DNA of 64,000 nucleotides from Calonectria ilicicola (lineage: Eukaryota; Ascomycota; Sordariomycetes; Hypocreales; Nectriaceae), in NCBI GenBank assembly GCA_020809705.1, contig CP085834.1:372001-436000 (forward strand), given 5' to 3'. The notes below the pieces were generated by a model. It was not told where the DNA came from, did not search any database, and worked only from the letters and a program-made list of their open reading frames with translations. Made by a program: the position numbers and the translations under genes. Every line of letters starts with the position of its first letter. Position 1 is the stretch's first letter. Positions 659-32,980 of this stretch are shown here, in pieces.

Positions 659-747
659 CTATTATAAGCTAATATAGTATTAATAATACTATATATACTG
701 TATAGAAAAATCAAATATTTTGATTTATAATAAATGATTATAAATCC

Positions 748-11979: not shown

Positions 11980-12805
11980 ATGACTTCCATCAAAATCACA
12001 ATTATCAATAACTCCGGAGATAACCAGAAATTCCTCCTATTTCACAGTGTACCCGAACGTTCTCGCATTTCTGGGCAAGATTTCAGCAATGTCTACCTTA
12101 AATCCCCCTTGATTCCAACAAGTTTCGATGTTGAGAACCCGCACTCGCACGCCAGCTTCACTGTGCCCACCAAGTATTATGCGGTATATAGCACGATTAC
12201 TGAAAGCAGCGATGGATCTACCATGATTACTAGTGGCGACGATATCCCTGTTACCCTTGGGCCTAACGGCACCTATGCTGTCCTTACAACTATCAACGGG
12301 GATGGGGTCAGCCCGTGTTGGGATCAGAAGGCCATGTCTGGCCAGGTCTCTGCAGCCCCTGGTGGGTTCACCATTGCAACTGACCCTACCTTGGCAAAGA
12401 AGAGTACGCCCAACCTTTTCCTTCAACTGCATTCTATCACCCGTTTTCATTTTCTGTTTCTTCATAAAGTGTGCTCACACAAGTATCCCAGGTAAAATTC
12501 GCATTGGAGTGGGTGCTAGGGCCACCGAAGGTGATGCCATCGTGCCAATTCAAACCTACGCCGCCACTCCCGATACAAAGGCTCAAATATTCCCCGTTCC
12601 TAAATACTTCATCACTCCTGCGGCAACTACCACCGGGACTTCTCTTGATGCTACTTTCTTCAGCGATGTTTTGCAGATCGACTTCAGGGATGCCACAAAG
12701 CATGACGTCACCTTTACCCTCAACAACGGCGGTACTTATACTTCTGGGGGCGATCTCAAGGCTGATGGCATTGATTGGAAAGTAGCTCCTCTACCTGATC
12801 CTTAA
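11980..12805 (+). CDS. Conserved fungal hypothetical protein
   Basis: Exons are 11980-12403 and 12492-12805, joined by an 88-bp intron with phase-consistent ends; the product is 245 aa. It has no signal peptide or membrane segment. It opens with MTSIKITIINNSGDNQKFLLF. The rest is rich in Thr, Ser, Gly, Val and Tyr with alternating hydrophobic residues, which suggests a beta-rich soluble fold. I recall similar fungal proteins beginning with a TIINNSG-like segment and carrying a YYAV segment (here at about residues 66-69), but no function is known to me. The second exon contains RIGVGARATEGDAIVP. Confidence is high for a real gene and low for any role. Confidence 0.75.
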
Positions 12806-12936
12806 GGCTTTCATATCATGAATTAATTTTGTCATTCATGTGATTTTGAGTCTATGAATTTCGATAGCTCCGTGCGACTGGATTTCAAATATCTCCCCAG
12901 CCTTGATCTGCAAACCGCTTCTTCGTAAAGCATTCA

Positions 12937-13320
12937 CAACGCCTCACTTATCAGAGTCGAAAACAGCTTGTGCAACATAGCTATAGGCATCCCAAGGGAT
13001 GGGTTGGTCCTTTCTTAGAGTAGACCTCTTCAACCAATGAAGCTGTACGCGCATATCGTTATCACAATAATCATAAGGCTTCAAGGCAAAGGCTGCCTTG
13101 CCCCAAAGAGAATGCACTCGAGGGCCCATGCAGACGACATCCTGAACTGATAGAAGTAGATCCTGATTGATTAATACCTGACAAGAGTATCTGGCTAGCT
13201 CCTCGGGTCAAATCTCTTAATGATCGAAAGGATTAACTCCAATTGGTCGAAATCCGTGGCTGAAAATGGAAAAATGCGAGCAACCTCGCCGTTAGGATTG
13301 CCTATAAGAATACATTGACT
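12937..13320 (-). pseudogene. HNH-endonuclease-like relic, paralogous to the gene at 14088
   Basis: The minus strand encodes fragments clearly related to the neighbouring HNH protein. One piece reads VARIFPFSA, matching VAHLFPFAG. A second reads FALKP followed by VQLHWLK, matching FALKP and LQFHWLK at the corresponding spacing. An amino-terminal half, a start codon and a continuous frame are missing. The HNH histidine of the AH(L/I) motif is replaced by Arg (VARIF). It is a truncated, decayed copy facing the intact gene. Confidence 0.6.
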
Positions 13321-14087
13321 ATTATCTCAGATTCGGCACTGTTGGCTTATTAGGAATGAGAAGAACTTAATAGTGAAATTTAAAATAAATAAAAATAAAT
13401 AATAATTTAATTAAATAATAAAGTATGATTAGTATAGCAGGATATAAGTGGTGGCAAGCATACGATAAGTAATTGAGAGCAGTTGTCAGCCTATAGGCTT
13501 TAGGCAAGAGTCGTGGGAACAGAACTGTAAAAGATATCAGCAAATAAAGTCCCGCAGGACAAGCAGAATAAAGGCGCGATGCAACCAGTGACGAGGTAAA
13601 GAGTTGCGCGGCTAGTACATAGAGATATAGTAAATCGCGAGATGGAAGAGAGAGAAAAGGCGCGAGGGAAAAAAGATGAGCAGTGCGTCTGACTAAAGCA
13701 CCGTGCCGCCTGACAGCTGCTCCCAGATGCAAGTTACCAGCGTCCCTTGTTGTACCTCTGGAAGATGAAATACTATAGTAAATTAAAAGAGGTTGCGCTG
13801 TACCTAGCTGCTGTGAGGGTAGATGGTAGCGAGCCACGGAACACCATTGTGTACACTACCAAAGAATTCAAAACCCTATTCATAAGCAAACATGATGATT
13901 AACATTGATGAACCTGGTTGGTCTACTGAAGCTTTCCCAAAGTCAGGTGAATAAATCTCCATCAACCCTAAAGGCCCCGCGTAAACATACATATAGTGCG
14001 ATCTCCCCCCATAAATCTTGCATCTTCCCGTGCCATTCTTTTCCCTCAATTTTATCACAACTGTACACCAAAGAGAGCAATTTCACC
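13321..14087. other. Gene-free stretch with a long leucine/tyrosine-rich shadow frame
   Basis: This stretch separates the HNH relic from the intact HNH gene. The minus strand carries an open frame of 156 codons (13837-13367) whose product is compositionally odd and whose 3' end is pure AT repeat. It looks like degraded repeat DNA rather than a gene. The last part before 14088 serves as leader for the HNH gene. Confidence 0.4.
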
Positions 14088-15294
14088 ATGAACCCCAACG
14101 AAAAATTCAAGCTCCCGCCCCTTGAATCAGAGGGGGTGAGGGCAAGTTTGGCTGTTGCTGAATTTGAACACACCAACCAGCTGCATTTCAAACATATTCA
14201 TCCTGTACACGGTTTCGTCAATACGCATCACGAGATGTTTATATACCATAACATCATGAATGCGGACATACCTGTGCCACCAACCGGCCCCTACATCGAC
14301 AATTTTGCCGAACGATATGCCTTATTCGATTCAATGCAATTGATTTTGCGAAGCGTAGGCATGGACCCATTGCATGCAACCAGTCTCGGTATCATTATGG
14401 TCGCACCGATTCATAAGGTGACGTGGATGAAGTACCACTTCGAACGATTTGATTTGACACATCTAATGGCTCGTGCCATTTTGAGGAGAGAGACCAATAT
14501 TCTATACAATACTGGTCCTGAATTCTTAACTTCATGTATGTTTGCCGGATTGGTTATCCATCCGAGTCATATGAGCCCTGAAGCAAATTTATTAACATTC
14601 TGATTTAGTTGTTGCGAGGCGAGGACTGCCTGTCGTTACTAATGCCTCGATACCTGCGGTAGCAAAGTGTCGAAGCCGATACGGCCACCGTTGTTTAATC
14701 ACGGGCAGCGAAAATCCCGAGGTTGCTCATTTATTCCCATTCGCAGGCAACGATGATTTCCAGGACACACCGATCGATTTATTCTGGTGTGGACAAGGTA
14801 GAAAAAGTCCACAGTCTGCCATTTATTCAATACTACTCAAATTTTGGGGTTACTCCGACACATGGCGAGAGTTATTTTCCAACGGGGCCTTATCTGAATC
14901 TCGGAATCTCATCTGCTTTAGCCCCCAATTTAATCTTTGGTGGAATCAAGGCAAGTTTGCTCTAAAGCCTATCAGGCGAACGGGCAACGAAGTTCATCTA
15001 CAGTTCCATTGGCTTAAGCCTTCTTCTCTTAGCAGGGGTGAAGAGATCCAAGGCAATGCGTTTCTTCCACAAGCTGGCCTTGACAACCTCGAATGGGGAC
15101 AGCAGGTTGCCTACGACGAGAATGGGTCTCGTATCCAAACAGGGCAAGTCTTTGTGATCCGAGCACTGCACCCAGAAGACCTTCCAGATATAGGCATTTT
15201 AGAGCTTCAGTGGGATTTCATGAGAATTGCAGCTATCGCTTGTGGGGGACAGGTTGCGAATAGAGTGAGGGCGGAGCAAATGGATGGACTGTGA
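14088..15294 (+). CDS. HNH-endonuclease domain protein
   Basis: Exons are 14088-14535 and 14609-15294 (intron of 73 bp, phases agree), giving 377 aa. The N-terminal half is all-alpha and unassigned. The second exon begins with an HNH_2-type domain: CRSRYGHRCLITGS, ENPEVAHLFPF, and a later N-containing block ending WWNQGKFALKP. This matches the widespread fungal HNH-signature proteins of unknown function. The start at 14088 has the context CACCATGA; an upstream in-frame ATG at 13905 would add a basic, unlikely leader. Nuclease activity is inferred from the Cys/His pattern. A degenerate inverted paralogue lies at 12937-13320. Confidence 0.8.
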
Positions 15295-15430
15295 TGATGT
15301 TTTATCAGTATGAGGTGCGCGAATCAATAGTTACTTGTGCCCTCAAATAAAATTTTGGCTCCATGAATATTGCGTATTCCTATTAGACGGGCATCGCACA
15401 TCCGTCACCTCGCGGATCGCTTCTACCACT

Positions 15431-17406
15431 CTAAACCACAGTTCCTGTGTCCTCGTCAACCTTGCGACGGATAATCTGCCCTCTGCCAAACTTTGCACGC
15501 TTGTGACCACAAAGCAACTCAACACGGTGCCCCAAACTTTTCAACCCTAGAATAGCAGCATCATTAATACCCTCTTCTACAAAAATGATTGGACCATGCA
15601 TCGCAGCAGCCCCGTGACCAGTCGCACTGATGCAAATTCTCGGAGCATCAAGTGCCTGCTGTGGGTTCATGCCAAACATTTCCATGTTGAGAAGAACTTG
15701 CAAGTGCCCTTGCGGTTGCATAAAACCGCCCATGACTCCAAAAACACTGTGCAACTCTCTATCAAGGTCGCTGTTGCCGACTGTGGTCAATCCTGGAATG
15801 ATTGTATGGTACGGTCTTTTTCCCGGCTGATAAATGTTGGGATGATCGGAAGGGCCAAGCTGGAAGTTTGCCCCTCTATTTTGCAAAGTGAAGCCACATC
15901 CTTTTGGAATGATAGCGGAACCAAACCCTTCATAATTGCTGTTTATGAAGCTTATTCCATTTCCGTATTGATAAGTTACGCAAAAATAGACAGTATCACT
16001 ATGGTTGTGAGCAGGACTCGGACTAGGCTCACCGTGTGAGTGATCCTTTGCTTCTTCTTTGTCAAACAGCTTTGCCCGGGAAGCCAAATAAGGCTTAGAA
16101 ATCATCTCTGCTGGACTTGCCTTGCTATAATTTGGATCAGTCACCCACCAGCTGGCGTCGGCGAATGCAATCTTCAGTGGCTCGATGATTGCATGAAGGT
16201 AGGGGACGGAATTGTGGTCTTTCCTTGAAAATTTGCCCACTTCCTGTCGTTGCTGGAGCTGTTGAAAAATCCCAAGCGCCATGAGAGCTACTATTCCTTG
16301 TCCGTTCGGGGGATGTTCCCATAGCTCAACACTCTTGCTGCCAATTTCCCCATCTGCCTGGTTTGATCTTAGAGCATCCTAGCCTCTAAATTTGAGTGAT
16401 ATGGGAGTTGTCTCTTCGCTCCCAGCATCCAAATAATTTTAAAGATCAAGTAAGTCCAGATGACCACCACGGAAGTTGACGACATCAATAATTGCCTTTG
16501 CAATACGACCGGAGTAAAATCCTTTCTTGCCTTCGGCTACCAGAGTTCGAAACGTCTTTGCCAAGTTGGGGTTTCGCATAATCTCTCCGGCTCGAGGGGC
16601 TCGAACGCAGTTCTCTGCTGACGCGTCGTATTTCAACATTTCATGAAAATTTGGAGACGCGTCACGAAGTTCCTGCTCTCCATTCTTCCACTATAACAGA
16701 TTAGAATTTTGTGCATAAGGTTAGAATACTGCGCTTACAAATCTGGCGCTCAATTCGCTGACGGGAAATCCTTGCTCACCAAGGTCAATGGCAGGCTTCA
16801 AAATATCTTCAAGACTAACTTTTCCACTGCCAAAGTTCTCAATAGTGTCCAACCACCCCGCTGCTGCACCAGGAACGGTCACGCTCAACGCAGACTTAAA
16901 TGGCATTCTCCCTTCGAATCCAACGTCAACCCCGAGCTCCTGGCGTATTTGTTCGAGCGTGGTATTCCTTGCAGATCGGCCAGAGCCGTTGAGAGCATGC
17001 ACCCTTCTTGTGTTGGAATTAAAATAGAGACAAAACATATCGCCACCTATGCCAGTATTCGCAGGTTCAGTCATATTCAAGGCTGCCGCTGTAAGGTAGG
17101 TCAGAATCTAGAGCTGTATGAATTTTGGTCAACTTTACTCACCAACCGCTACTGCTGCATCCTAGTATTTGTTATTTTTCTAGTTTCAACGATCTCGGAA
17201 TAACTTACTGCTGCATTGCCTCCCATCTTGAGAATCCTTTGACCGACTTCCGCCGCAAGCGGCTGAGTACATGCGACCATTCCATTAGTGCTATATACAA
17301 CACTCCTTCTGCTTGAGAACTCCAGATAGTGAGGGTCACTATCAAAGCTCCTCTCAGCTGGAAGGGCGGTGGAGGTGGATAGTGATGGTGATGGAATTGA
17401 TGCCAT
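15431..17406 (-). pseudogene. Gamma-glutamyltranspeptidase family, two in-frame stops
   Basis: Exons are 17406-17209, 17161-17143 (only 19 bp), 17088-16739 and 16690-15431, all phase-consistent, for 609 codons. GGT enzymes move or hydrolyse gamma-glutamyl groups after self-cleavage at a Thr. Early GGNAADAAVAV and GIGGDMF are present, as are LWEHPPNGQG, the cleavage region DTVYFCVT, GFGSAIIPKGCGF and GKRPYHTIIPG. There is no evident signal peptide. In the last exon TAA at 16441-16439 and TAG at 16381-16379 interrupt a frame that keeps family similarity on both sides. No reasonable intron removes them. The expected function is therefore probably lost, unless the stops are sequencing errors. Confidence 0.8.
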
Positions 17407-18550
17407 GATATTGGGTTCAAGATTGGGGTTGGAGATGGGAAGAGCATGCAGATAAATTCAAGCAATCGCTGACGCAACCCACAAAACCTTTGCCCTAGTC
17501 GTTGAGATGGCTGGTCCTGGCTTGTCCCATTCCGCTTAGCGTATCTTTAAGGTAACATCAGGCGGATGACGGTTAGCGGTCCGCTACCCACTGCATGAAT
17601 TCTATTCAGCGCTTGAGAGCTAGTCGAAGCGGATTTGGCTCATCCACACACGTGTCTACTGGCCAGAATTGTTAGAATTTGTGGTCCTCTGAGTCATGGA
17701 ACTACAAGCGGAACAGCAGAGAGGGCTTTCAATGCTTGGCTGCAACAGTGAATTCTGAGCCCTCACTGAGTTAGACTTGCCTGGAAATAAGGGTCTATTA
17801 TGTTTGAAGCCTTAACAGCCCAAATCTCTTCATATCAGGCGTCAAGAAAACTGAAAATTTGGAACCCTTTGGGTCTTAGTCACTGTCAAAGGCTGGGTAT
17901 GAGCTTCACTGTCTGCATCTCACTGTTCTTAGCCTCACGGCATTATCTACTGTTTCCTTCTCGCAAGAGCAGGCACCCTTTGAAGCAAAGGCCAGATTCA
18001 ATACTAATCAATCAATGTATTCAGTTGGGAATATGGCTCGAAATAGCTGAGGGGTGCTGCCATGGTCCACATCTCCACCAACAACCAACAACCAACTGAT
18101 AACAAGGTAAACGGGCATATTTCAAGCACAGCTGTCTATGCCTGCCAAACTGCCTACTCGCTTAAATTTGACTCCGCCGCAAACACATCCTGATTTGTCA
18201 CCCTTGTTCAGTATTTTCCAAGAAGAGTAAGGTGACCCAACCAAGATTTAGTTCGCCATTAGTCGTCTCAGAGCATCCCTTCTTACGAAAATTGATGTTT
18301 AATACTAAAAAATAATGAAGTCTCCTCTCCGGCCACAAACTCTCGACTAGGCTTTGCCTGTCGTCCTGCACCAACTGCAGCGACACGCCACTGCCGTTAT
18401 CCTTCTCTGGTCGCTCTTCTAACCAAGTTGCATTGAAGAGCTTCCATTGTTGAGAATACCGGATCGCCCCAAGTGAAATTGGTGATGCGCGCATTAGGGC
18501 GTGCTCTGAGTGAACCGCCGCGCGCAATCAAGTTGCGAAGATCTGTTGCA
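17407..18550. other. Intergenic region between GGT-family pseudogene and isocyanide synthase
   Basis: No supported gene lies here. Minus-strand frames at 18198-18681 lie directly behind the isocyanide synthase stop and might be eroded coding sequence, but they show no recognisable domain. Confidence 0.4.
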
Positions 18551-19816
18551 CTATGAGTATAATAGCCCTCTAGCAACCCCTCCTTGCATTTTGTGTGACA
18601 GCTGGTCCTCCATGATAATTTTATCAAGGTTGTCTTGCCTCTTTTCCTGAAAATGGCTCGGGCGACCATCCACATGGACAATTTCTAGCCTCGGGTCTCT
18701 TAGAAAATCACCCATCGGTGCACTAAGCCATTCGCCATCTTCCATCTGAGCAACACTACAATGCCATGGAGTGGTGAACCCAGTCTTGGTGTTGAGTAAA
18801 CTCATTGACACCTTATGCTCACCGGTCGACTGATGTATGGAAAGGCGGAGGTGGTTTGGGAATGCTGACTTGACAGCCTCTGCAAAAGCCTGTTTGAATG
18901 TAAAATTTAGCTATTGTATCCCTGGAAATATCAGCATCCAATACACTTACATATCCTCGCACCAGCATTTCCTTAGCTAGATACTTAATGTTTCTTTTAT
19001 AACTGTTGTTTGTTCTGCCATTACCAGCCGGGAAGATGTGTTGCAAGTCTGACTCCAGGAATCGCCGGTATCCTCTATAGGTCATCAACGTATCAGCATT
19101 TGTTGCAATTTCGTGATCAACATCAAGGTCATCCTTCCCATATTTATTGAGAAGGGATCGGCGGAAATTAGTGGCATTCGCTACGTAGGTGATTTCCTCC
19201 AGTTTTTTAGGCATTGGGAAATCTACCAAGTCTTGAAGTCTGGAGAAGCCAATATGGATGAAGCCCTTTTCGAATGACATAGCGCGTAGAGCCTCTCCAT
19301 AAGCCCAAGTATCACGATCCGATATGCAGAGTAAGTCTATCCTCAGGGTTCGGTGTTAGTGAGAAACTGCGACTAAGCTACTCCTTGCTTGAATATACGT
19401 TACGTACCATTGTAAACAATACCATCGGAGATAATAGTGAGCCTAGCGCCTGGTTCGTATATGCTCCTAATACGTGCACACATATCGTTGAGACGCTCAA
19501 GAGCTAGCTGCTCCGCCTTGTCAGGGAATATATCAAACACCTTATATACCTTATTGGCCGACTTAAACGGGAACGCAGGAAGGCACATTTCTACTTGGAC
19601 CTCCGCCAATACAAATCTCTCAATGACTGCTAGGAACCCGGGTGTGCCTGAGATGAGACGTTCGATCGTATCGTCAAATTTATTTAAAGCGAATTCGAAT
19701 ATGATGGACAGGATCTTGACGGAAGTCTCCGACACCCCCCTAGGGATATGTGTCGATGTCCCCTCAGTAGGACAATGGCCTACGAGGGAGTTTGATATTT
19801 TGGGCAGAACTTGCAT
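18551..19816 (-). CDS. Isocyanide synthase (DIT1/PvcA family), stand-alone
   Basis: Exons are 19816-19408, 19336-18951 and 18889-18551, with introns of 71 and 61 bp. Phases agree and the product is 377 aa. Isocyanide synthases turn the amino group of an amino acid into an isonitrile using ribulose-5-phosphate. Family marks are MCLPAFPFKSANK, TIISDGIVYND spanning intron 1, WAYGEALRAMSFEKGF, FPNHLRLSIHQSTGEHK just after intron 2, FTTPWHCSV, and GRPSHFQEK near the end. The start at 19816 is the first ATG in frame before the conserved region. It has no fused TauD-like dioxygenase or NRPS module. It is divergent from the A-T-transferase gene at 21780 across about 1.96 kb, implying a shared pathway. 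Confidence 0.9.
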
Positions 19817-21779
19817 GTTGGACCATGGAGGACTAGAAAGGTCAGATCTCGAGAATATTATTTTGAAGTAAAGGGAGGCGAGTGATGTGATCACGGTGGG
19901 AATGTCAAAATCGGAGGTCAGGATGGTACAAGTGAGAGCGGATGTACATACATAGATAATTAAAGGGGTAAGATGGAAGACCGTTGATTGGTGGATGCCA
20001 GCTTTATGCCGCCCATTCAACCGCAGCAGGCCAAGGCGGGGTTGTAGTAATCTATGCCACAAAAATCAGCCTTTGCTTTTGTCCATCTGGATTTGGCAAG
20101 TGCTAACCTAAAGCGTGCGCTATGTGGATCGTCGCGAATCATACGTACAACACAAAGTCTCCCATGGACAGACCTGGTAATATAGTAATAATGCCATTAT
20201 GATCGGTGCGGGTATTAGTCCGATGATTAGTGGAAGGATTAGTATTTCAATCAATATTGGTCTCAATATTATTATTGGTATTAGTAGAACATAATATCAA
20301 GCCCCGCTTGATTCAGGACAAAACGGAAGGTGATAAGAGACCATGTTGAGAACGACTAACTAAAAATACAATGCACCCCTTGAATGTAACGGAGTAGACC
20401 CTAGCCACTACACCAAAAGGATATGCGTTGTGATGTCTACAACATCACAACTAGCTATGGTATATATAGGGCACAGCTATGGCTGTGACATTGGAAGATT
20501 GTCCCGTTGTGACTTATTCACGTTAGAGGCGCTAAAGCCCGGTTACTCCAAATCTACAAACTAAAATAAATAATAAAATAAATAAATAACTGAGAACCTT
20601 TTATTTTATTTTATTTTATTTACAAATCATTTTCATTTAGGCTCTATAGCTATGAATTAATAGGAAAAGTAGAAGCGGGACAATGTTTCAATGGTTGTAC
20701 TTTATACCCCTGTTCTTTTATTCGGAGTTTTGCATGTGCCGAGGAGATCCTGGTCTGGCCGTTTGATTGAATGGACCGACCGGAGTGGCTGAATCATTTC
20801 GAAAGTCCGAATGTAGCACCAGGCATCGAATTAAAAAATAGCCCAATAAGAACGGTTTGATGTCGAGATATATTACTGGCTAATCAATTTATTTGATGGT
20901 GGATATCAATCTAGCTATTTAAGTGTATGTTTTCCTACAGCATGTAACTACTTGCCAATTTTGTTTAATTGATGTTATTAGATAGATTACCCTTCTGGCT
21001 AGAGAATAACCATGTGTGGAAAATCGGGAGAAAGATGCTGCATTGCTGAGTTCGGACACTGAAAGGAATAAACTCCGTCCGAGCTGTGGGTCCTGATATC
21101 CCTTGTATGTAACATTTGTCTCCAAGGCCAAGTGTTAGTTTATTAGTCATCGGAGGAATGAATGAATGTATTGGCTCCAAGTGGGGTTAGGACCCACGGT
21201 CTAGGCGCACTCTTTGAGTTAAAATGGCATAGACTTTGCTGCGCCGGCAACGCATGAAAACTAAAAGTATTATTGGCGATTAAGCCCGGCTATTGCTCAT
21301 ACAAAACTTTTCCGAATGCAACATTACCGCCTCATTCAAATTTGAGTGTGCTGTTACAGTTATGTGATTGGTTTGGTCTGGATTTTATTACTTTTTTCCA
21401 TCAGAACAAGACCGAGTGAGAAATATGTAGCTGGAGGTCATCTGGACATGACGACTACTCCTTGCTCTTTTTATTTAGTTCCGGGCCGAGCAGGGTCTGG
21501 GCTTTCGTCTTACTATTTGTCTTAGTATAGGTAGACTAGCCATGCAAAGGTGGCACCACCTGGGCACTTCATTCAGAGTGCTGGTCCACTTATTAAATCT
21601 TTGAACCAAAACAGTTAATTTTTTAATTTAGCCAGATCCCGCGTACTGCCTGTGTTGCATAATCGTATCCTCTTCCCCGGTGGTAACTGCTACTTCTTAC
21701 AGATAGCCTTGTTGAATCCCTTCCGCTGTACTGATCTTTCACTTTGACAACAAATCCCTCTGAAGCTACCACAACGACT
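19817..21779. promoter_or_regulatory. Divergent intergenic region of the isocyanide gene pair
   Basis: This 1.96-kb region holds the promoters of both pathway genes. It contains a perfect 10-bp inverted repeat with a 5-nt spacer at 20427-20451 (GTTGTGATGT..ACATCACAAC). A 6-bp inverted repeat CACAGC/GCTGTG follows near 20473, with TATATATA between them. At 20560-20620 there is an A-rich then T-rich palindromic tract. I looked for the copper-responsive TTTGCTCA-like motif and found only weak partial matches (ATTGCTCA near 21291). Confidence 0.45.
20427..20451. repeat. Perfect 10-bp inverted repeat, 5-nt spacer
   Basis: GTTGTGATGT, a 5-nt spacer CTACA, then ACATCACAAC. It lies between the two divergent isocyanide-pathway genes, closer to the synthase, and could be a dimeric regulator site or the end of a small repeat element. 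Confidence 0.6.
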
Positions 21780-24700
21780 ATGGATCCCTCACTACAATAT
21801 GGAAAGAGACTTATTCCTCAAATATTGGATAGTCTGGCCTCTAGCGACCCTGATCGTATCATTTACTCCCTAGCGAAGTCTGTTGACATCTCGCATGGAT
21901 TTCGCCATGTTACCGCTCATGAATTCACAAAAGCCGTTGACAAAACCGCTTGGTGGCTTTATGAACAAGTGGGAAATATCTCATCTATTCAACCAGTGGG
22001 TTATATCGGACCCCGTAAGTTACAAAGCTCATCCTGTTTCAGGGCTCCTTGTCATTCTCTAACAATATTAAGACGATCTTCGACATATCCTATTAATATA
22101 CGCGTGTGTCAAAGTTGGTTGTACGGTACTAGAAGCTGCTTTATTCTTTGAATGAGGGATCTACAGACTAACATCATTGCTTTGAGTTATTTTATAGGCC
22201 CTGCTTTTGTCCCCAAAAAATAGTACTGAAGGTGCTCTGGCTGTCCTCGAAGCAGCTAACTGCAACATTTGGATCAAGCCTCGGGAGGAGCCGTGCCTTT
22301 CTCTAGTCGAACATGTTCTCCAGAAACGCCCCATGAAGCTCCTAGACCTCCCTGAGCTCGAGGAGCTTCTCGATACTGAAAGTTCAGACAGTTATCCGTA
22401 TACAAAAACATTTGAAGAGGCTATTCAAGATCCCTTTTGTCTTCTTCATACATCTGGGTCCACCGGGCTACCAAAACCCATATCATGGTCGCATGGCCTC
22501 CTGGGAACAATGGATGCTGTGCGACTGCTTCCGTCTACTGAAGGTGATCATGGTTTAGTGCCATGGACATCGATGTGGAATGAAGGTGATAGAATATACT
22601 CTTCGTTCCCTATGAGCCATGTGAGTAATCCATTTTCACTTGAAACTAAAACTTGTTGCTTAATTTAACTTTCCGCTGTTTGAAGGGTGCCGGCATTATT
22701 ATGAACCTCCTCATGCCTGCATACTTCCGTCTTCATTGCGTCCTTGGACCAGCGGGTGTGATACCCAACATGAATCTGATGGAATCTCTGGCAGATCATG
22801 CAAATATTGATATCTGGAGCATGGTTCCATCACTTGTTGATGAGCTGGGCGAGACTCTCGATATATTGGAAAAGTTCAAACCGTCAAAATTCATTTGTGC
22901 ATCTGGTGGTGAGCATGGTCTCATCTTCGTTCTTATGACCGTACTAATTAAACTCTCTGCAGGTCCTGTTAGCCCTCTTATCGGCTCAAAGGTCAATGAA
23001 ACCATTCGAGTTCTCAACTTGACCGGCACAACGGAGGGTCTGTTCATAGGTAATCTTATTGTGGAAAGGGAGGACTGGCTGTACTTTGCCTTCCATCCCT
23101 TCTCCGGTTTTGAATTCAAGGAGGTGGAACGAGGCATCTTTGAGCATTGGGTGCACCGTAATGACAAAGAACTTCTTTTCCAGGGAATCTTCTACACATT
23201 TCCGGACCAGAAAATGGTCAACCTCAAAGATTTATACACTAAGCATCCCACAAAACCGGGCCTGTGGGCCTACAAGGGAAGAAATGATGATGTTGTAGTC
23301 CTATCAAATGGATACAAAATCTCCCCTCTAGATACCGAGGCCTTGGTCACAACCCATCCAGCAATTGATGGCTGCCTGATGGTATGTGTATTTTGCGAGG
23401 TTTATACACACATGTGTTTCACAATGCTAATAAAGTAGCGAAATAGGTCGGAACTGGAAAGGCACAGGCCGGTCTGCTCATTGAATTGAAAGATCCATCG
23501 AGGCGCGATAACGGACTATTTGACAGTATTTGGTCATTAGTACAGAGAGCCAATTCGTTATCTTTACACAAGGATCAACTTCAAAAGGACTATATCGCTT
23601 TTGCAGAAGCAGATAAGCCGTTCATTCGTACAGACAAGAGAACTATCAAGCGGCGTGCTACTTTGGCCATCTACGCTGACTATATCGAACGATTCTATAA
23701 CTCCAGAATGGAGGAAGAAGATGTAAATCCATCTATAACCTTTGATTCAGATTCGCTAGAGTCAATTATGGGCGTGATCCGTCAAATTTTGGGCTCTTTA
23801 CTACCATCATTCAAGATTGCATCTCCAGAAACCGATGTCTTCAGTTTGGGACTGGACTCGATCCTTGTTTTTAGAGCTATCAAATCTATTCGTAGTGTTT
23901 TCAAGCTACGGGACAGGCTTTCTCCTAGGGATCTTTACGCAAATCCTACTCTAGAGAGCTTCTCTACCGCTGTCTCACGCTTATTAGCTGAATCAAAGAA
24001 AGACAATGGTGCCGCTGCAAATGGACTGGTCGATGACAAGCTTGCCAAATTGAATCAGTTAATTCACAAACACAAAACACGTCTCTCAACCAAGGCAAAT
24101 CCATTTGATATGACATGTCCAAATATGTATGGGAGACTGAATTTCTTTATCCCCCTACGCAAAGGTGTTAGCTTCCGGAGAGCGTTTAAAGGATTACAAG
24201 AGGGTCTTAAGCGCACTATTGAGCTTATTCCAGTCCTGGAAGGCAAGATTATTCACTGCTCTGAAGAAGAGACTAGTTATAAAAAGGGTGAGGTTCGCAT
24301 CGACCTTCCCGCTCTTCCATCTACAGCCACACCTGAGGCCAATTGTTCGGACTCTTCTGACGGCCCAAAGCAATTGGTATACAAGGATCTCTCTCAAATT
24401 CTTCCTTCATATCAGGAGTTACACGATGCTGGATTTCTTGCTTCTGCGTTCGCAGACGAAATGTTGAACGAGGGACCTTGGATTCCATCACTTCCAGCTG
24501 ACGTTTTAGTCTCACAAGCCAACTTTGTCGAAGGCGGCTGCATCCTGGCTGTTAATGTACATCATGCGTGCTTTGATGGCGCCGGTATTATCATTGCCCT
24601 AAAGGTCTGGGCTGAGAGCTGCAGATATGTTCAGGGGGATACGTCTAAAGACTGCAGTTGGTTGGATCCTGAAAGTTCCAACCGTAGCCTTCCATATATC

Positions 24701-25627
24701 TTGTATGAACAAGAAGGGTACGCTAAGCCGGCTCATGAAGTGGATCCTGCTGTTTGGGGATTTCTACCATTTCAAAGTCCAAAGGGGCTTGTACATAAGG
24801 ATGAAGGAGGCAAGTCCAAGAGCCTTTGGTCAAGTCTCCCTGCACCGCCGGCGTACACGCGTCAGCTATCCTGGCCACCTCGTCCAACTGAAGATGGCCG
24901 TCATTTAACCTCGACTACTTTTTTAATCCCATCTGAAAAACTGCAAGAGCTGAAGCAGCAAGTACTTGCTGACCCGGAGGCCAAGGGAATCGTCACATCT
25001 GAGAGCGATATTGTACAAGCTTTTTTCTATCGGGCAGCGTTGAAGGCACGGTACCGTGCGGCAACAGAACTTCTAGGGAAACGCTTTAATCCCAATGATA
25101 TATCGATTCTTGAGATGGCAGTTGATGTTCGATACTATTTCTCCTCTTTGCTCCCAGCGTCCTATATGGGCAATATGGGGATCACCAACCGTCTTTCTTT
25201 TCCCATCGAGACAATCTGTTCTCCAGAAACCAGCGTTGGACGCATTGCCTATGATATTCGGGATTCGGTCAAGCATATTACACCTCCGCTCGTTCATGAT
25301 TGCTTCACACTGTTACAATCAGTGTCTGACTACAGTGCGCCTAGATATGCTGGCATGGGCATTGACGGGATGCACATGTTGATGAACAATCTAATGATGT
25401 TCCAAACGAATGACATCTCATTTGGCAGCGATCTATTTGAAAAGGATGGATGCCCCGATGCTCTACGTCTACCTATGGGTGGATTTAATACAGCCCTGAG
25501 AGTACTAGTTATCTATCCGATCCGCGAGGACGGCGGCATTGAGATGGTACTGGGCACATATCCTGAGGAATTTCATATACTTATAGCAGACAAAGAATTC
25601 ATGAAGTATGCCAGATTTCTTGGATAG
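21780..25627 (+). CDS. NRPS-like protein: adenylation, thiolation, acyltransferase (CrmA-like C-terminal half)
   Basis: Six exons: 21780-22014, 22073-22125, 22198-22620, 22686-22908, 22963-23381 and 23447-25627. All phases agree, for 1177 aa. An adenylation domain spans about residues 1-540, with the ATP-binding TSGSTGLPKP near 181, YKGRNDDVVVLSNGYKISP as the A8 region, and an RTIKRRATL-type end. A carrier domain follows with LGLDSI; Ser589 is the expected phosphopantetheine site. The C-terminal 500 residues form a BAHD-like transferase with HHACFDG at about 823-829. There is no condensation, reductase or thioesterase domain. The order A-T-transferase is, as I recall, that of the CrmA-type isocyanide synthase-NRPS proteins after their synthase domain. 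Here that domain is the separate divergent gene 18551-19816. Its substrate is probably the isocyanide acid or an amino acid; this is inference. Confidence 0.88.
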
Positions 25628-27119
25628 CCCCTATGGCTTCACCCCGGCCAACCTTTATAGCCATTAGCTCCCTTCAGATGAACAAAGAAAGCCCCACACA
25701 GTTCATTTTAGAAAAGATATTGATAGTGAAGCCTGCCTTTGTCTTGAAAATATTCTGTTTCCTCGCTATGACACACTGCGGAACATAGTCAGTGAAGTGT
25801 GCTTCCCAACACAACTATTCTCTGCGCAGTTACTAGGTCATCACATTAGAGTTAGTGGGATGAGGATATGATCAAATTCCTTTATGAATTAAGTACTATC
25901 GTGATAGGTATACATGCCACCGGGTAGGTGAGCTGATTGATGGCCACCCGCTTGAATTACCTCTCAAAACTTTTCCTTGTCCAGAGGAAGCGACCATTAT
26001 TTCTCAAGATTGTTTAGTCCATTGGATAATTAGTGGGCTAGGAAACTATGTGTTTTAGTTAGATATCCCCTATGAGAGGCAGCTCGACCTACTCGTCTAG
26101 GGAGCAGTCCGATTATTCTTGCCTGCTAGATGCGACGGCAAAATAGTAACCTGTATCATTTCTGCCGTAAGATACCGTAGATGTCGAAACCTTGAGGTGA
26201 AGGTTTTCAATGACCTCGATGAGCCTTTCCTGGGAACTTTATCGAGACCTGAGTATAAGAGCAGCTTCCCGGGCTAAGCGTGATCCAAACCATCACCAAA
26301 GCAATCCTCGTACAATCACCAAAATGGAATTCCCAGCTAGCAAAGTATGACTCCAGAGATAGAATTCAAAGCTATGAGATAACTAGAGCTAGCGTAGACA
26401 ATGCCAAGCTACCATACATCTACCGCAGATGGAACCGCAACGATGGGGCAAGCCCTGAGCCAGTCAATGTAAAAATTGGCTATTCAAAAGGTCTTCTTTT
26501 CTATGGTAGGAAATGGGCAGGCTTCCTCTTGTTCACTAAGACTGACCTCGTGCAGTTTACCCCGTTTGCGGCAAGTATTCCTTCTTCAAAGCAGTACAAG
26601 AGCCGACTGTCGGGATCCCAAGTCAACTAACCATGCTCTACTAGGGGCGCAGGCAGTGTTGGAGTCTCTCCAAACCAGAGGGTTATTGCCAACATTTAGA
26701 CTAAACACATGGCTCCCATATGATGATACATGTAGACTTGTATAGTTTTCGCACCCGTGTGCTGCTCTCAGGAACACAAAAATGGAGAGAATAATCGACA
26801 ACATGTTTTAGGATACAAGAGGCTCAAATCCCATGATGATGCCAGTAACATTCAAACTCGATTTCCATTCTCTCTATACCCTTCACAAATCCGAAATAAT
26901 AACCCAAATCTCATCCGAGTTTAACGCAGCATGTGCCATCTCCCATCCAGCTCCAAGCTTGGTCAACCCCACAGCTTCCCCGCACAATGGTCTAAATTGC
27001 AGCGCACAGGATCCTTCGCTGGCGGGCCGCCTTCCGCCCCATGGTCGGCGGAGCTCCGAGAGGTCACCTACAGATTCAGGAGGAGCTCCGCTGTCAGCAT
27101 TGCTGACCTGCCGGAAACG
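25628..27119. other. Intergenic region
   Basis: About 1.5 kb without a supported gene. A frame of 116 codons at 26280-26630 has no motif and no good start context. A GC-rich island at about 27000-27130 carries overlapping open frames on both strands and two copies of a GGAGCTCC palindrome. Confidence 0.4.
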
Positions 27120-27126
27120 CTTAGCC
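27120..27126 (-). promoter_or_regulatory. Possible XlnR-type site upstream of xylitol dehydrogenase
   Basis: CTTAGCC on the plus strand is GGCTAAG on the minus strand and fits the GGCTAA core bound by XlnR/AraR-type regulators. It lies about 180 bp before the dehydrogenase start. One short match is weak evidence. Confidence 0.25.
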
Positions 27127-27306
27127 GCTGAGCTGAACACCTCGCACCAAGACAGAAGGGGGGATATGATGATGAGCTCCAGCTACAAGAGTTACAATGA
27201 AATTATCGACTCCTTATTAATTTTGATCAAATTGATTTTCATTTTGGGCAGTTGCAAGCTTCATTAAACCCATTCTCCCAAATAATTCCAATATACAGTC
27301 ACCATA

Positions 27307-28495
27307 ATGGACATCTCCTCTGCGAGTGTAAGTGGATTCTCTCATTCTGCCATGAATCAATAAATATTATTAAATGATTTTCTCCTCCTTTTTTCTCCTA
27401 AAAAGCAAAAAAGATGATACCTAATATCCACATTCACTCCAGAATCTCTCTTTCATTCTGAACAAACCCAATGATCTCAGCTTCTCTGACCGGCCAGTCC
27501 CGAGTCTTAGCTCTCCTCGAGATGTTCTAATCGCAGTTAATTACACTGGCATCTGCGGATCTGATGTGCATTTCTGGAAAGAAGGTTCTATTGGGCATTT
27601 TGTACTCAAGGAGCCCATGGTCCTCGGTCACGAATCGGCTGGCACTGTTGTCTCTGTGGGAGATCTAGTCAAAACACTTGTACCCGGCGATCGAGTCGCT
27701 CTGGAACCCGGATTCCCATGTCGTCACTGTGAGCGCTGCTTGGGTGGCAAGTACAATCTCTGTCCGGATATGCAGTTTGCCGCATGCCCGCCACATAATG
27801 GCACCCTCACGGGCTTCTGGGTATCACCGGCGGATTTCTGCTATAAGCTCCCTGATAATGTGTCTCTTCAGGAGGGCGCATTCATCGAGCCTCTGGCGGT
27901 GGCAGTTCATATTATGCGGCAGGCCTCCCTGACCCCTGGGCAATCCGTCGTAATAATGGGCGCCGGCCCTGTTGGGCTATTGTGCGCAGCAGTCGCGAAA
28001 GTGCATGGTGCATCTAAAATCTGCAGTGTCGATATTGTCGAGTCAAAGCTAGAGTTTGCAAAGACCTATGCCAGCACGCACACGTACATTTCCCAACGCA
28101 TCGATGCCGAGCAAAATGCAGCCAACATCAAACAGCATATCGGATGTCCTGAGGGGGTTGATGTTGTCATAGATGCAAGCGGCGCTCAGCCGAGCATTCA
28201 AGTCTGCTTACACACAGTACGAACTGGTGGGACGTACGTCCAGGGCGGAATGGGTAAGAGCGATGTTAAATTCCCCATCATGGCCATGTGCATCAAAGAG
28301 ATTACCGCAAAAGGATCCTTTCGGTACAACAGCGGGGATTACAAAGTCGCCATTGACCTAGTGAGCAGGGGAATGGTGGATGTCAAGAAGTTGATTAGCG
28401 ACACGGTACCCTTTGACCAAGCGGAGCAGGCCTTCAATAAGGTAGCTAAGGGGCAAGTTATCAAGATTTTGATCGCCGGGCCAAACGAGAAGTAG
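27307..28495 (+). CDS. NAD-dependent xylitol/sorbitol dehydrogenase (zinc MDR)
   Basis: Exons are 27307-27327 (7 codons) and 27443-28495, with a 115-bp intron; the product is 357 aa. It is a zinc medium-chain dehydrogenase of the polyol group, which oxidises xylitol to D-xylulose or sorbitol to fructose in pentose and polyol catabolism. Catalytic zinc residues are in GICGSD and GHESAG. The structural zinc motif is PCRHCERCLGGKYNLC with four Cys. The nucleotide fold shows GAGPVGLL, followed by an acidic residue in SVDIVESKL, which points to NAD rather than NADP. A possible XlnR-type site is at 27120. Which polyol is preferred cannot be decided from sequence; xylitol (D-xylulose reductase) is the likeliest. 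Confidence 0.9.
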
Positions 28496-31400
28496 AACAA
28501 GACGACTACGGCTACAGCCTCAGCGATGTGAGACGTGATGAGGGCCAGAAACCAGTGTCAATAGTGTACTTAATTGTTTTCTCCTCCAAATCTTGAATCC
28601 TTTCTGTGGTATCTTATTAGTCATTTGTGAAGGAGCTTACTATAATTTAATACGCTCGGAGGCTGACAAGAACATCGTCGAAGGGTCCCTGTCATTAGAT
28701 TTGGAGCTCATACTCAGTTGGGTGAAGCACCTCCCTGCAAGTGGCAAATCGCTAACCAGTGGCGGGAATGAACCGCTTGCCGCCTCACCGTTTACTTTAT
28801 TCAGAATGCCAACCTTGTCTTATTAGTGCGGAGACTGGCCAGGCGTGTGGTGGGTCCGATACGGCTTCAAACTATCTCCCCAGCATGCTATCCACCGGAT
28901 TGCCGGTCAAAGTAGTCCAGATAGAGAAAATAAGACTGAAACCTGACCGAAGAGCTTCTCTTTCACCAAAAATGATCTCTCGGTAGCAATCCCAACAAAA
29001 TTAGACAAGTGGAGAATATGGCATCCATACGCTGATTCTTCGTTCAACCTATGAAGCTCTCAAACCCATCAGTAATTGCGATTCTTTGTATTTTTATTAT
29101 CTAGATTCCTTTCTTTAGCCACCAGGATGCTTAGTTCATCAGAAAACGAAGCCGAAGTGACTATCAAACCCCAAAACATCGGTCACTTCCGGCGGTGGAC
29201 CGTGGATGTCAACACTCAATGGGGTGACATTGTGCTCCTCGTATTGAATTTCTAGCTTCTTGAATGACCTCTGGGCGTTAGTTACTCTCGCCATGTCGAC
29301 ATTCAACAATAGAAAAGCCGCGTGTATGACAGCTCCTACCCTACGGTACATTTCACGATGTGAAACAATGTACCTCATGGATTGCAAACGTGACTTGCTA
29401 CAAGCAGTCAGAAAAACTCATACAATAAGCCGTCTTCTCATTGCTGCATCCTAAGATTTAATGTTACTAAGACTCAGAGAGCCTTAATTCGCGGCCCAAT
29501 ATCTCCACAAGCACCCCGGCGGTTAGGAAGGCGAGCAGGTCTCCACCCGTCTATAGCATTCTCCGCATCCAGATTAATGTGGAAAGTCTTGGAGAAGGTT
29601 GCCCAGCGGCAAGCGGAGTACTACTTCATTCTTCATCCACTGGTCAAATACGAATACCCTTGTCAGGCTAAGGGCTGGTTATCAAAGTGGAGAACCCAGT
29701 TTGTGGGGAACCGGTAGCGGTTCGCTCTCCGCAAGGCAACTGAGAGCGAAATGAAGGCTTGTCTCAACTTAGCTTAGTTGGGATTAGTGCGTTCAGTTTT
29801 CAGCCTAGCACTGAGGTTTATGAGCTAACGCAATGAGCAAGCTCCTCAACTTGAGGCCGCTTTTCGTCTACATCTATGCCTACATGTCAAAATATTTGTG
29901 TGGTGGTTGGTAATTCAATCATACAGATCGAGATAGGGGACGAACCTGCAGATCTTCTTCAGTGGCATTGCTGCTGTGCTCACATGATGGGTCTTGATCC
30001 ACAATAAACGAGAACAATGTGGAGACAAGGTATAGATGGCTATGCTCCAGAAGCCACCGATGATCTTCTTTTTCAACTTCTAGCGTCAAGGCAAACCCCA
30101 TTGTACACCAATTCATTAGGTGCCCGGAAGTTAATTCTACTGTACTAGACTGCTATCAGCATCCCGCCTCAATGGCATGACGATATGTATTTCTTGGCAA
30201 GTTGCTGATGCAAAAATCACAATAGCCTAAGGCCACATAAACAACCGCCAGCACAATCCCCCGCCCTAATAATTCGTCAGACCACGTAATACCACCAACC
30301 CCGGAGATAAGATTCATGTTTGCGGATAGTTGTAAGAAATGTTGGGACCACAGTTGTAACACCCAGCTTGAGAGACACGTTGTTTTCCATTCGTAGTTTA
30401 GTTTGGGAATTTCTGTCCATGACGCTTTAGTTATGACCAAAACTAGAGATCTGTTTTGCAGGTGAAAGACTAGTGCGTGTCCTAAACATTCATGTTGATG
30501 AGGTGCTTTTACGTCATTTACGACCCACTTTACTGCTCATAAAATAAGATCACAATCATTGTTGATTAGCATTAGGCTTGTCTAAACAAGCTGAGCTCAC
30601 TATCTGGAACCAGGTTTATCTCGTGGCAGAAAGATTCTGACATCAGGATGCGCTTAGATGACGCCGGGTAATTTCTCGCTCGAGATACTGGAGTTACCCG
30701 AGGAGCGATTGCAAACGTTCAGCATTCGGTGTGACCTATACCCAACAAGATCAGTCTAGGAACAACCAAAAGTATTTGACAAAATATCATCATTTTAAAG
30801 TGCTGCCAATGTTGTATACATTATGTTACATTATTATTTTAATGGTATAGTTTTACTACCAACCTATACACTAACAATGCTCCATTAGAATAACGTGAAT
30901 GTTGACATTCCCGGCCTAGGTCTCTGAGCTTGATGGTGAGTTACTGGCTCTACTTGCAGTAATAAAAACCTGGCTTCAAAATATTTTATCCACTTTGATA
31001 TCACAAGTCTCTGAATCAACTTGGTCGTCCACGGCTAGTCATCCAGCTAATTTCATATTTACTAGTCTAAACGTCTAGCCAGTAATTGAGTGCGCGCGGC
31101 CACAGTTCTAAAACCCATTAAAGTGTAAAATGACGCCAAAAAGAACGCTATGTTGAGCTTGAGATCCACTGATTCATCCGAATACTACCAAAACGAAATT
31201 ATGGCATGCCAAGGCTGAAGCACTCGGACCACAACGTTCCAGATTTAAGTTTCAATGCACTAAAATTACCAGGGCAAGTAGATCTACACAGCCGAAAGAA
31301 ACAAACCAATCATCGTGCAGTATGTACGAGGCTGATGTGAGATCATGGAGTGACCAGAATAGGCTTCTACTTTACTAAGAGAGCTTCAACAGCCCTGAAC
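28496..31400. other. Long gene-poor interval
   Basis: Nearly 3 kb lacks a convincing gene. On the minus strand, 29387-29139 is an open frame of 82 codons preceded by a plausible 3' splice site (CTTGTAG), possibly the last exon of a decayed gene. Other minus-strand frames at 29919-30116 and 30156-30440 show no family features. Confidence 0.4.
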
Positions 31401-31406
31401 AACGAA

Positions 31407-31414
31407 TATAAATA
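31407..31414 (+). promoter_or_regulatory. TATA box of the secreted repeat protein gene
   Basis: TATAAATA lies about 140 bp before the start codon at 31551. The intervening sequence is rich in CTCTCTTT and ACTCTC stretches, as in many strongly transcribed fungal genes. Confidence 0.45.
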
Positions 31415-31550
31415 TCATTCATGTTTTATCGCAAGATATAATTTATGCTCACATAACATTCACTAAAATAAATACCATTCTTTACGCTACTCTCTTTGAA
31501 CAAAACTCTCTTTCAAAACGCATATAATCACTTTATTATCCAACGTCACA

Positions 31551-31910
31551 ATGAAGTCTTTTGCGCTCCTCGTTCTCGCCGCCACTAGCGCCATGTCAAC
31601 TCCCATCGCCGACGAAAAGCGTCAAATCACTTGCGAAATCTTTCGCGTCGCTGGTGTCCCAGGGCCCTGGGATCCTATGATTGAGAAGTGTCGCAATTGG
31701 AAGCCGAGCCACTCCCAGCGAGATTCCAACTCCGTTACTAGTGATGTGTCAGCTAGCGTGGACAACGAAAAGCGTCAACTCACTTGTGAAGAGTGGCGTA
31801 TGGCTGTCGCTATGCCACAGCCCTTCGACCCTATGAGAGAGAAGTGCCGCACTAAGAAGCAAATCCGCTTCCAGCGCGATCCCAACTCCGCCACTACGTC
31901 TGATAAATAA
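31551..31910 (+). CDS. Small secreted protein with two Kex2-separated repeats
   Basis: This 119-aa, intronless protein has a typical signal peptide (MKSFALLVLAATSAMS, cleavage near residue 19-20). Two repeats each follow a dibasic Kex2 site: EKRQITCE at residues 22-29 and EKRQLTCE at 73-80. Both then share an R.A..P.P(W/F)DPM pattern, EKCR, and QRD.NS. Each repeat has two Cys about 20 residues apart (28/47 and 79/99). Kex2 cleavage after KR would give peptides beginning with Gln, which can cyclise to pyroglutamate. This layout is that of kexin-processed secreted peptides and some fungal RiPP precursors. No modifying enzyme is seen next to it. Function is unknown; an effector or signalling peptide is possible. 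Confidence 0.82.
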   Translation: MKSFALLVLAATSAMSTPIADEKRQITCEIFRVAGVPGPWDPMIEKCRNWKPSHSQRDSNSVTSDVSASVDNEKRQLTCEEWRMAVAMPQPFDPMREKCRTKKQIRFQRDPNSATTSDK

Positions 31911-32448
31911 GGGCTTTATTCCTGCTCTGGGAGAAAAGATGGACGGCTACGATGAAAACCCCGTTTAATCGCCAAGATGTGTCCTTTTCTACCAGCCTTG
32001 CACATGCCAACTCCACAAGCATGTCGACATACCACTTATTTTACATTGAAAATCATTGGGCGCAGTTGAACGACTAGACTGAGCATGGATTTCTTTGTTC
32101 ATTTTGGAAGGGAATACTATGGAGTTGTTGAGTTATGAGGTCAATGGGTTTTTTCTAAAAATCACTGATCCATAAAAAGTGTCAAAATAGCCAACTTTGT
32201 AGCGGAATGAAAAGAAATCTGACCGTTTTCGCCCAAAAGAATGCATCAGACACAAAAGGTTCTTGCACTCAACTGAACCAATACCAGTAAAACTGTTCCA
32301 TTCGCCCACTCGAGCTCGCGCCACTAATGCTTAACACAAGCAATATTATTTAGATATACTGTGAAAGTTAACACGGCATGAACTATCAGCATCTATGTAG
32401 CGTGCATCTTGCCTGCATCTTGCCTGACCCTTACCCTGTCATATAACA

Positions 32449-32790
32449 CAGATACATGCCAACAGCTCTGTGTTTCCTACGGCTAGCAACAATGCTGTCC
32501 ATTCAAAATGTGCGGCATGTGTCAACGGGGCGGTTAATTTATGCGAGGAATCAAAAGAATCAGGCTTTGACGACTGCATCTGCATCGATGAAGGCGGAGA
32601 CGAAGTCGTCGGCGAATGTGGCAAGAATGATTCATATAGCACTGCCTCCAGAGAGTTATGGAGGTACTGCGTTGCAGATTACCCACATCTCCCATTATTA
32701 CGACGACTACCAAACCTCTTCACAGACAAGAGGCAGGATCGGGCGCTAGAATCCAATATTGACTCATTCAACGATTCAACAGTGCCTTGA
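32449..32790 (+). pseudogene. Orphan Cys-rich coding fragment
   Basis: After a good acceptor (AACACAG, ending near 32449) one frame reads through a Cys-rich segment with CAACVNG, LCEES, DDCICID and GECGK, ending at a stop at 32788-32790. The spacing of about eight Cys and the polar composition resemble an exon of a small secreted Cys-rich fungal protein. No start codon, signal peptide or upstream exon is found, so it is probably a fragment of a lost gene. It could instead be the last exon of a gene I cannot trace. Confidence 0.35.
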
Positions 32791-32980
32791 AAAATATATA
32801 AGGTTCGAATTCCCGTATGCTTTTAAGGTGATTTCGCGCTCTATTTAATCGATAGTATGTTGTCTAATAACGCCGATTTATGCATATTCTTCCCCCAAAA
32901 TTAAGTAGTTATGTCATGATTCCATCACGCTGTCCGAAAATTCCCATCATTAAGTATTATTGTGTATCCCTTCATATCCT

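What the first reader, a model, noticed from the sequence alone, without database searches (positions are those of the whole stretch)
18551..25627. Split isocyanide synthase plus A-T-transferase pair: a divided CrmA-like pathway
Seen in the sequence: a complete isocyanide synthase of 377 aa on the minus strand, and a divergent gene for an adenylation, thiolation and BAHD-like transferase protein of 1177 aa, 1.96 kb apart. Known, as I recall: in the CrmA-type fungal enzymes these domains are fused in one chain. Inferred: the two genes form one pathway that makes an amino-acid-derived isocyanide, loads it on the carrier and transfers it to an acceptor. A natural split form would show which domain interfaces matter and whether fusion or fission came first. 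It may make an undescribed product.
Basis: partly seen in the sequence, partly recalled or inferred. Interest (0 to 1): 0.88.

Follow-up and report, generated by a model that had tools for sequence, protein, structure and literature searches.

The report
Two-gene version of fungal CrmA
A fungus carries, side by side, two separate genes that in better-known fungi are fused into one enzyme (CrmA) involved in making isocyanides; the split layout is already published for Fusarium, but here it belongs to a different branch with an unusually divergent transferase domain, in a genome that also keeps a fused copy.

Summary
In detail: a 377-aa isocyanide synthase (ICS) gene on the minus strand and, 1,963 bp away, a divergent 1,177-aa adenylation-thiolation-BAHD transferase (ATE) gene, inspected core motifs intact. 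Interpretation partly supported. The two halves are relatives of the halves of CrmA and are linked in many fungi, so the pair is one unit. But the split form is not new: Nickles et al. 2023 (PMC10153163) reported it in Fusarium (GCF 8) and proposed fusion. Added here: (1) the same genome holds two more divergent split pairs and one fused CrmA in a crm-like cluster; (2) same-contig split pairs occur beyond Fusarium (other Nectriaceae, Colletotrichum, Lecanoromycetes, Dothideomycetes, Leotiomycetes); (3) the window belongs to a separate clade whose transferase has diverged more than its ICS and A domains, suggesting the same isocyano-acyl donor and a different acceptor; (4) rooted trees mostly place the fused forms inside a split grade, favouring fusion, yet none of five AU tests rejects fused-first (p 0.125-0.425). 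No product, expression or copper response is shown. Known kind, new variant.

The parts
18551..19816 (-). Monodomain isocyanide synthase gene, 3 exons (19816-19408, 19336-18951, 18889-18551), 377 aa
   Evidence: model; PF05141, 329.9 bits; 79% over 87% to Thelonectria olida
19817..21779 (.). Shared divergent intergenic region, 1,963 bp, GC 41%; one TGCTCA (Mac1-like core), 1.43 expected
21780..25627 (+). ATE gene (adenylation-thiolation-BAHD-type transferase), 6 exons, 1177 aa
   Evidence: model; Pfam; 67% over full length to Thelonectria olida
23858..23860 (+). Carrier (T) domain serine codon in the SLGLDSI motif; Ser in 68 of 68 aligned rows
   Evidence: sequence (codon placed by eye)
24560..24580 (+). 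Transferase HHACFDG motif; second His and Asp invariant in 68 of 68 aligned rows
   Evidence: sequence (placed by eye)

Best explanation
The pair is a two-gene form of the CrmA pathway. The ICS turns an amino acid (valine is the best guess, by analogy with CrmA) into an isocyano acid; this small acid is free to diffuse, is adenylated by the A domain, held on the T domain, and passed by the BAHD-type transferase domain to a hydroxyl or amine acceptor. Shown here: both genes open throughout, inspected core motifs present, homology of each half to CrmA, linkage and co-evolution of the halves across fungi. Inferred: the chemistry, the substrate and the order of steps. Also inferred: because ICS and A domain stay CrmA-like while the transferase has diverged, this branch probably keeps the donor and changed the acceptor. 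The separate genes are probably the older state and CrmA a fusion of them (favoured, not proven).
For: Gene models and domains; A motifs, T serine, HxxxD; nearest rows by tree path are split pairs (five of five; the fused Lojkania is third and fifth); 23 of 70 same-contig pairs, 10 of the 23 with consecutive locus tags (names); Mantel r 0.77 for 26 split pairs, 0.83 for 25 without one suspect pair, 0.90 for 21 fused halves; apart from one distant NACHT-type match the four ICS/ATE regions of this genome share only these two genes; identities to A. fumigatus CrmA: ICS 65, A 67, T 42, AT 48%, whereas Alternaria CrmA has A 69, AT 66; at A identity 64-70%, AT averages 64.1% (range 56.8-69.7) for 33 fused-fused pairs, 61.8% (54.3-70.9) for 197 other-split/fused pairs, 48.8% (40.0-61.8) for 178 window-clade/fused pairs. 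Published: CrmA makes 2-isocyanoisovaleric acid and related mannitol esters depend on it (PMC9381783, passages); in F. oxysporum FOXG_09770 (an ATE, P0189) and its crmA are both bound by Mac1 and induced without copper, though with high variability between repeats (PMC11563359, passages).
Against: No expression, metabolite or biochemical data. [quoted passage not shown] Window branches are long (ATE end branch 0.43-0.59 against 0.14-0.17 for Thelonectria), which could also mean relaxed constraint. Raw identity distances of the halves correlated weakly (r 0.43 for 33 rows). Copper motif not enriched. Fused-first is not rejected by any AU test.
Confidence: 0.72

Rival explanations
1. Fission: a fused CrmA ancestor broke into two genes, and the window pair is a product of that break.
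For: AU tests do not reject all split rows as one clade against fused plus outgroup (p 0.177; 0.125; 0.287; 0.126; 0.425). A few ICS-only records (P0050, P0069, P0071, P0082) fall inside the fused clade, though they may be partial gene models.
Against: With 10 outgroup proteins (ICS-TauD type) the root lies on the window side of a 98/91 branch, all fused rows on the other; same with concatenated halves (98/100) and with transferase outgroups (100*). The base of the ATE tree is unresolved. The three split pairs of this genome are divergently transcribed, which a simple break would not give; the orientation of pairs in other species was not seen.
Confidence: 0.25
2. Neighbours by chance: ATE loads a different acid and does not use the ICS product.
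For: The T domain and transferase are only 42-48% identical to CrmA; no biochemical link known.
Against: Repeated linkage in distant fungi, co-evolution of tree distances; five A-domain stretches that I chose differ from A. fumigatus CrmA at 3 of 24, 3 of 18, 0 of 13, 1 of 18 and 5 of 16 positions; only these two genes recur at all four loci of this genome.
Confidence: 0.08
3. The window pair is a decaying paralogue; the fused CrmA on contig C1 does the work.
For: Long window branches in ATE and transferase trees.
Against: No stops or frame breaks in either model, invariant catalytic residues kept; ICS and A domain remain 79 and 77% identical to Thelonectria.
Confidence: 0.07

Closest known systems
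CrmA, the fused ICS-NRPS-like enzyme of Aspergillus fumigatus (crm cluster, Won et al. 2022, PMC9381783)
   Same: Same four domains, same family in each half; ICS 65% and A 67% identical; inspected A, T and HxxxD motifs present
   Different: Two divergent genes instead of one chain; no AATase, hydrolase or transporter Pfam hit in six frames of 9900-18601 and 25600-35201; transferase only 48% identical; HHxxxDG where 18 of 21 fused rows read NHCCLDG
GCF 8 of Fusarium: monodomain ICS next to an NRPS-like gene (Nickles et al. 2023, PMC10153163)
   Same: Same split architecture of the same two kinds of protein
   Different: Window lies in another clade than the Fusarium pairs of the F. verticillioides type; no terpene synthase hit nearby, whereas 89.5% of the 95 published ICS clusters with both NRPS-like and terpene synthase genes are GCF 8; the window genome is probably not Fusarium
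F. oxysporum crm genes FOXG_09770 / crmA (PMC11563359)
   Same: FOXG_09770 (P0189, 1209 aa) is an ATE without ICS, 56% identical to the window ATE; the gene listed next to it is crmA
   Different: P0189 clusters (80% or more) with the F. austroafricanum ATE, outside the window clade; it sits in a five-gene cluster under Mac1 control (passages). The paper describes crmA as ICS-NRPS-like; that it is a monodomain ICS is my inference

Membership tests
CrmA (fused ICS-A-T-transferase) | ICS, A, T and BAHD-type transferase domains of the CrmA lineage | tested here: met
CrmA (fused ICS-A-T-transferase) | All domains in one chain, ICS first | tested here: not met
   Two genes on opposite strands; in 51 of 51 proteins with ICS similarity (50 of the 120 listed plus own C1) the ICS lies N-terminal
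CrmA (fused ICS-A-T-transferase) | Copper-starvation induction | not testable with these tools
   TGCTCA 1 in 1,963 bp, expected 1.43: uninformative
CrmA (fused ICS-A-T-transferase) | Valine-derived isocyanide product | not testable with these tools
   Needs metabolomics; chosen A-domain stretches resemble CrmA
GCF 8 (split ICS + NRPS-like, Fusarium) | Monodomain ICS beside an NRPS-like gene with CrmA-type domains | tested here: met
GCF 8 (split ICS + NRPS-like, Fusarium) | Terpene synthase in the cluster (frequent in GCF 8 by the published count, perhaps not strictly defining) | tested here: not met
   No terpene synthase Pfam hit in six frames of 9900-18601 and 25600-35201 at E 0.05; published count
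GCF 8 (split ICS + NRPS-like, Fusarium) | Groups with the Fusarium pairs | tested here: inconclusive
   F. verticillioides-type pairs lie with Oidiodendron, apart from the 12-row window clade. But the F. kuroshium, F. sarcochroum and F. decemcellulare pairs lie in the window clade; which of these GCF 8 covers could not be read
BAHD acyltransferase | HxxxDG catalytic motif | tested here: met
   phmmer finds trichothecene 3-O-acetyltransferase structures 2zba, 2rkv, 2rkt
BAHD acyltransferase | DFGWG structural motif | not tested
   not examined; motif recalled

The most novel reading that the evidence does not exclude
Split ICS/ATE pairs are the ancestral, widespread form of the CrmA pathway and work as a donor-constant, acceptor-variable platform: several paralogous pairs in one genome load the same isocyano acid, while their fast-diverging transferases hand it to different acceptors, giving a family of undescribed isocyanides beside the fused crm product.
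Probability: 0.3. Interest if true: 0.72.

Novelty: new variant of a known kind. Interest (0 to 1): 0.5.

Why it matters
It gives a natural two-protein system in which the isocyanide-forming and the activating/transferring steps of CrmA can be assayed apart, which matters because the authors of the CrmA paper leave the acyl transfer step to an unknown transferase. One genome with three split pairs and one fused copy, plus split pairs in Lecanoromycetes, Dothideomycetes, Leotiomycetes and Sordariomycetes, makes the fusion-or-fission question testable and suggests the split form is not confined to Fusarium as described.

Tried and rejected
Mac1 copper motif: TTTGCTCA absent from the intergenic region (one hit in the window, at 44836, 4.28 expected); TGCTCA core 1 observed against 1.43 expected in the window promoter, 2 against 0.53 (C3), 0 against 0.85 (C11), 1 against 1.09 (1,500 bp upstream of C1): no support either way.

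Wider cluster: Pfam on 20 long ORFs and on six frames of the two flanks gave a gamma-glutamyltranspeptidase, a zinc alcohol/polyol-type dehydrogenase and a cerato-platanin gene near the pair, but no P450, terpene synthase, transporter or AATase in those flanks; the flanks are not shared with the other three loci, so I treat the pair as the unit. A link of the dehydrogenase to the acceptor is speculation.

Single fusion: in ATE trees of the paired set all fused rows are one clade (97/97; 96*), but in ICS trees Lojkania stands apart (six changes in the larger) and in the transferase-only trees three changes are needed; one clade is not rejected for ICS (p 0.356). One versus two or three fusions stays open. 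In the first ATE tree of 68 rows four changes were needed; two 'split' rows inside the fused clade (P0228, P0232) are jgi-source records and may be partial: P0228 still starts with 43 residues of ICS.

Congruence on raw percent identity was poor (r 0.43 for 33 rows; r 0.06 for 19 rows); the second set had been cut by a naming slip that dropped all Fusarium pairs. Tree distances gave r 0.77-0.83. The Ilyonectria 2586-kb pair falls in different clades for the two halves and is probably mispaired; it was kept and dropped.

Rows dropped before trees: one search clustered 124 rows to 68, 175 to 99; P0223 and P0228 were left out of the ICS tree.

Faulty steps, redone: one search picked a wrong intron in the C1 CrmA model (fixed); one search used a truncated own C1 row; one search used a wrong-strand outgroup fragment (145 aa), replaced, where the outgroup falls next to the window and the window clade is not resolved; one search queried exon 1 alone and found nothing.

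Full report
What is there. The window is G000:C10:372001-436000 of a 69.9-Mb fungal genome in 12 contigs. Pfam finds PF05141 in the first and AMP-binding, AMP-binding_C_3, PP-binding, TRI-like_N and Transferase in the second. In an alignment of 68 ATE rows the carrier serine and the second His and Asp of HxxxD are invariant, and the window keeps each A-domain motif inspected.

The rest of the genome. PF05141 finds 21 exon matches, which I read as eight ICS genes. Four have an ATE beside them: the window; C3 (ICS start 3750217 minus, ATE start 3750941 plus); C11 (ATE start 1159826 minus, ICS start 1160996 plus); and C1, where ICS and ATE form one 1630-aa chain starting near 249775. C1 sits beside an alpha/beta hydrolase, an AATase and MFS genes, as in published crm clusters (AATase crmB, transporter, hydrolase in some species; PMC9381783, passages). 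So one genome holds three divergent split pairs and one fused CrmA. A blastp of ORFs of 60 aa or more in the window and 40 kb around each other locus finds nothing shared between loci besides ICS and ATE, except one NACHT-type match between C11 and a distant part of the window.

Relatives. The ICS search found 499 proteins and listed 120; the ATE search found 616 and listed 120. Of those 120 ATE records, 50 show ICS similarity by blastp (P0223 and P0228 only for a C-terminal piece) and 70 do not. Of these 70, 23 share contig length and species with an ICS record among the 120 listed; 10 of the 23 have consecutive locus tags, one (F. xylarioides) has tags six apart, and the other 12 show no comparable tags in the names given. 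The 23 include Thelonectria, Ilyonectria, Fusarium, Colletotrichum, Niveomyces, Paramyrothecium, Xylographa, Teloschistaceae, Clathrospora, Plenodomus and Oidiodendron. Classes looked up: Xylographa and Polycauliona Lecanoromycetes, Oidiodendron Leotiomycetes, Plenodomus Dothideomycetes, Thelonectria Sordariomycetes; others recalled. The count is a lower bound because 379 of the 499 ICS hits were not listed.

Trees. The paired set has 26 split pairs (22 same-contig pairs, F. verticillioides matched by tags from two strains, and three own) and 21 fused proteins. The ATE tree makes the fused rows one clade (96*; 97/97 and 100% of 200 bootstrap trees). The ICS tree leaves Lojkania apart (0% of 200 bootstrap trees with one change), but one clade is not rejected (p 0.356). 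A 12-row window clade (window, own C3, own C11, Thelonectria, F. decemcellulare, Xylographa, Niveomyces, F. kuroshium, F. sarcochroum, C. acutatum, Ilyonectria 817, Paramyrothecium) recurs: ATE 100*, A domain 98*, and, taken together with the outgroup as one side of a branch, transferase 100*, concatenated 98/100, ICS 98/91. It is not resolved (other model and outgroup) nor starred. Patristic distances of the halves correlate: r 0.82 for 47, 0.77 for 26 split, 0.83 for 25 without the suspect Ilyonectria pair, 0.90 for 21 fused; 0 of 5000 permutations reach each.

Fusion or fission. Outgroups attach on the window side, leaving all fused rows on the other side, in the ICS tree with ten outgroups, the concatenated tree and the transferase trees; the base is an unresolved fork of split groups and the fused clade. 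That favours split-first. Yet forcing all split rows into one clade is not rejected in any of five AU tests: p 0.177, 0.125, 0.287, 0.126, 0.425. Outgroup branches are long in all but, so direction is favoured, not shown.

How it may work. Against A. fumigatus CrmA the window has ICS 65%, A 67%, T 42%, transferase 48% identity, while Alternaria CrmA at similar A identity (69%) keeps transferase 66%. At A identity 64-70%, transferase identity averages 64.1% (33 of 210 fused-fused pairs), 61.8% (197 of 294 other-split/fused comparisons) and 48.8% (178 of 252 window-clade/fused comparisons); the ranges overlap (56.8-69.7, 54.3-70.9, 40.0-61.8). Within this genome the three split pairs have A 69-76% but transferase 44-52%. 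18 of 21 fused rows read NHCCLDG; all 12 window-clade rows read HHxxxDG, but so do 4 of the 14 other split rows. The plainest reading is a conserved isocyano-acyl donor with a changed acceptor; this is inference, and uneven rates from other causes are possible. These comparisons share sequences and are not independent.

What is known. Nickles et al. (PMC10153163; abstract, passages and section 20 read) state that GCF 8, closest to crm, has a monodomain ICS beside an NRPS gene with the same domain, call it Fusarium-specific and infer fusion; its supplements and the final journal version were not read. PMC11563359 (passages) shows FOXG_09770 and crmA bound by Mac1 and induced without copper, with high variability; since FOXG_09770 is an ATE without ICS (P0189), that 'crmA', described there as ICS-NRPS-like, is probably a monodomain ICS (inference), so a split pair would already have been seen to be co-regulated. 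PMC9381783 (passages) gives CrmA's valine isocyanide and the mannitol esters and leaves acylation to an unknown transferase. PMC5974471 (passages) gives the three ICS architectures. PMC11433043 (passages), on Nectriaceae genomes, mentions isocyanides but no split pair. In the searches I saw no description of the split pair outside Fusarium, but apart from these five papers I saw the results only as listings with abstract starts.

Verdict. Real, apparently intact, conserved, and a new branch of a known two-gene arrangement; not a new class.

Noticed in passing
window 45904-49020 (-): Large ORF with HMA, PCA1-type HMA and E1-E2 ATPase domains: a PCA1-like heavy-metal P-type ATPase about 20 kb from the ATE; any link to isocyanide/copper biology is untested.
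   Followed up: no
window 41425-45440 (+): NACHT-N/NACHT ORF followed by a WD40-repeat ORF, an NLR-like gene of the kind seen in fungal self/non-self recognition (reading recalled).
   Followed up: no
window 58676-61399 (-): Second NACHT-type ORF with DUF7791; a relative (31%) lies near the C11 split pair at C11:1167724-1169796.
   Followed up: no
window 15401-17092 (-): Gamma-glutamyltranspeptidase match just downstream of the ICS gene.
   Followed up: no
window 27425-28492 (+): Single-ORF zinc alcohol/polyol-type dehydrogenase next to the ATE gene; could bear on a polyol acceptor but not shared with the other loci.
   Followed up: partly
window 32984-33340 (-): Cerato-platanin match.
   Followed up: no
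window 1-2000: GC 26.7% against 41-51% in the other 2-kb steps: an AT-rich island at the window edge.
   Followed up: no
L011 (C8:5187000-5196999): Two ICS genes in tandem on contig C8, only distantly related to the window ICS.
   Followed up: no
P0017, P0019, P0023 and others: Several standalone ICS records are listed with the ABC transporter N-terminal domain PF14510; whether real fusion or gene-model error is unknown.
   Followed up: no
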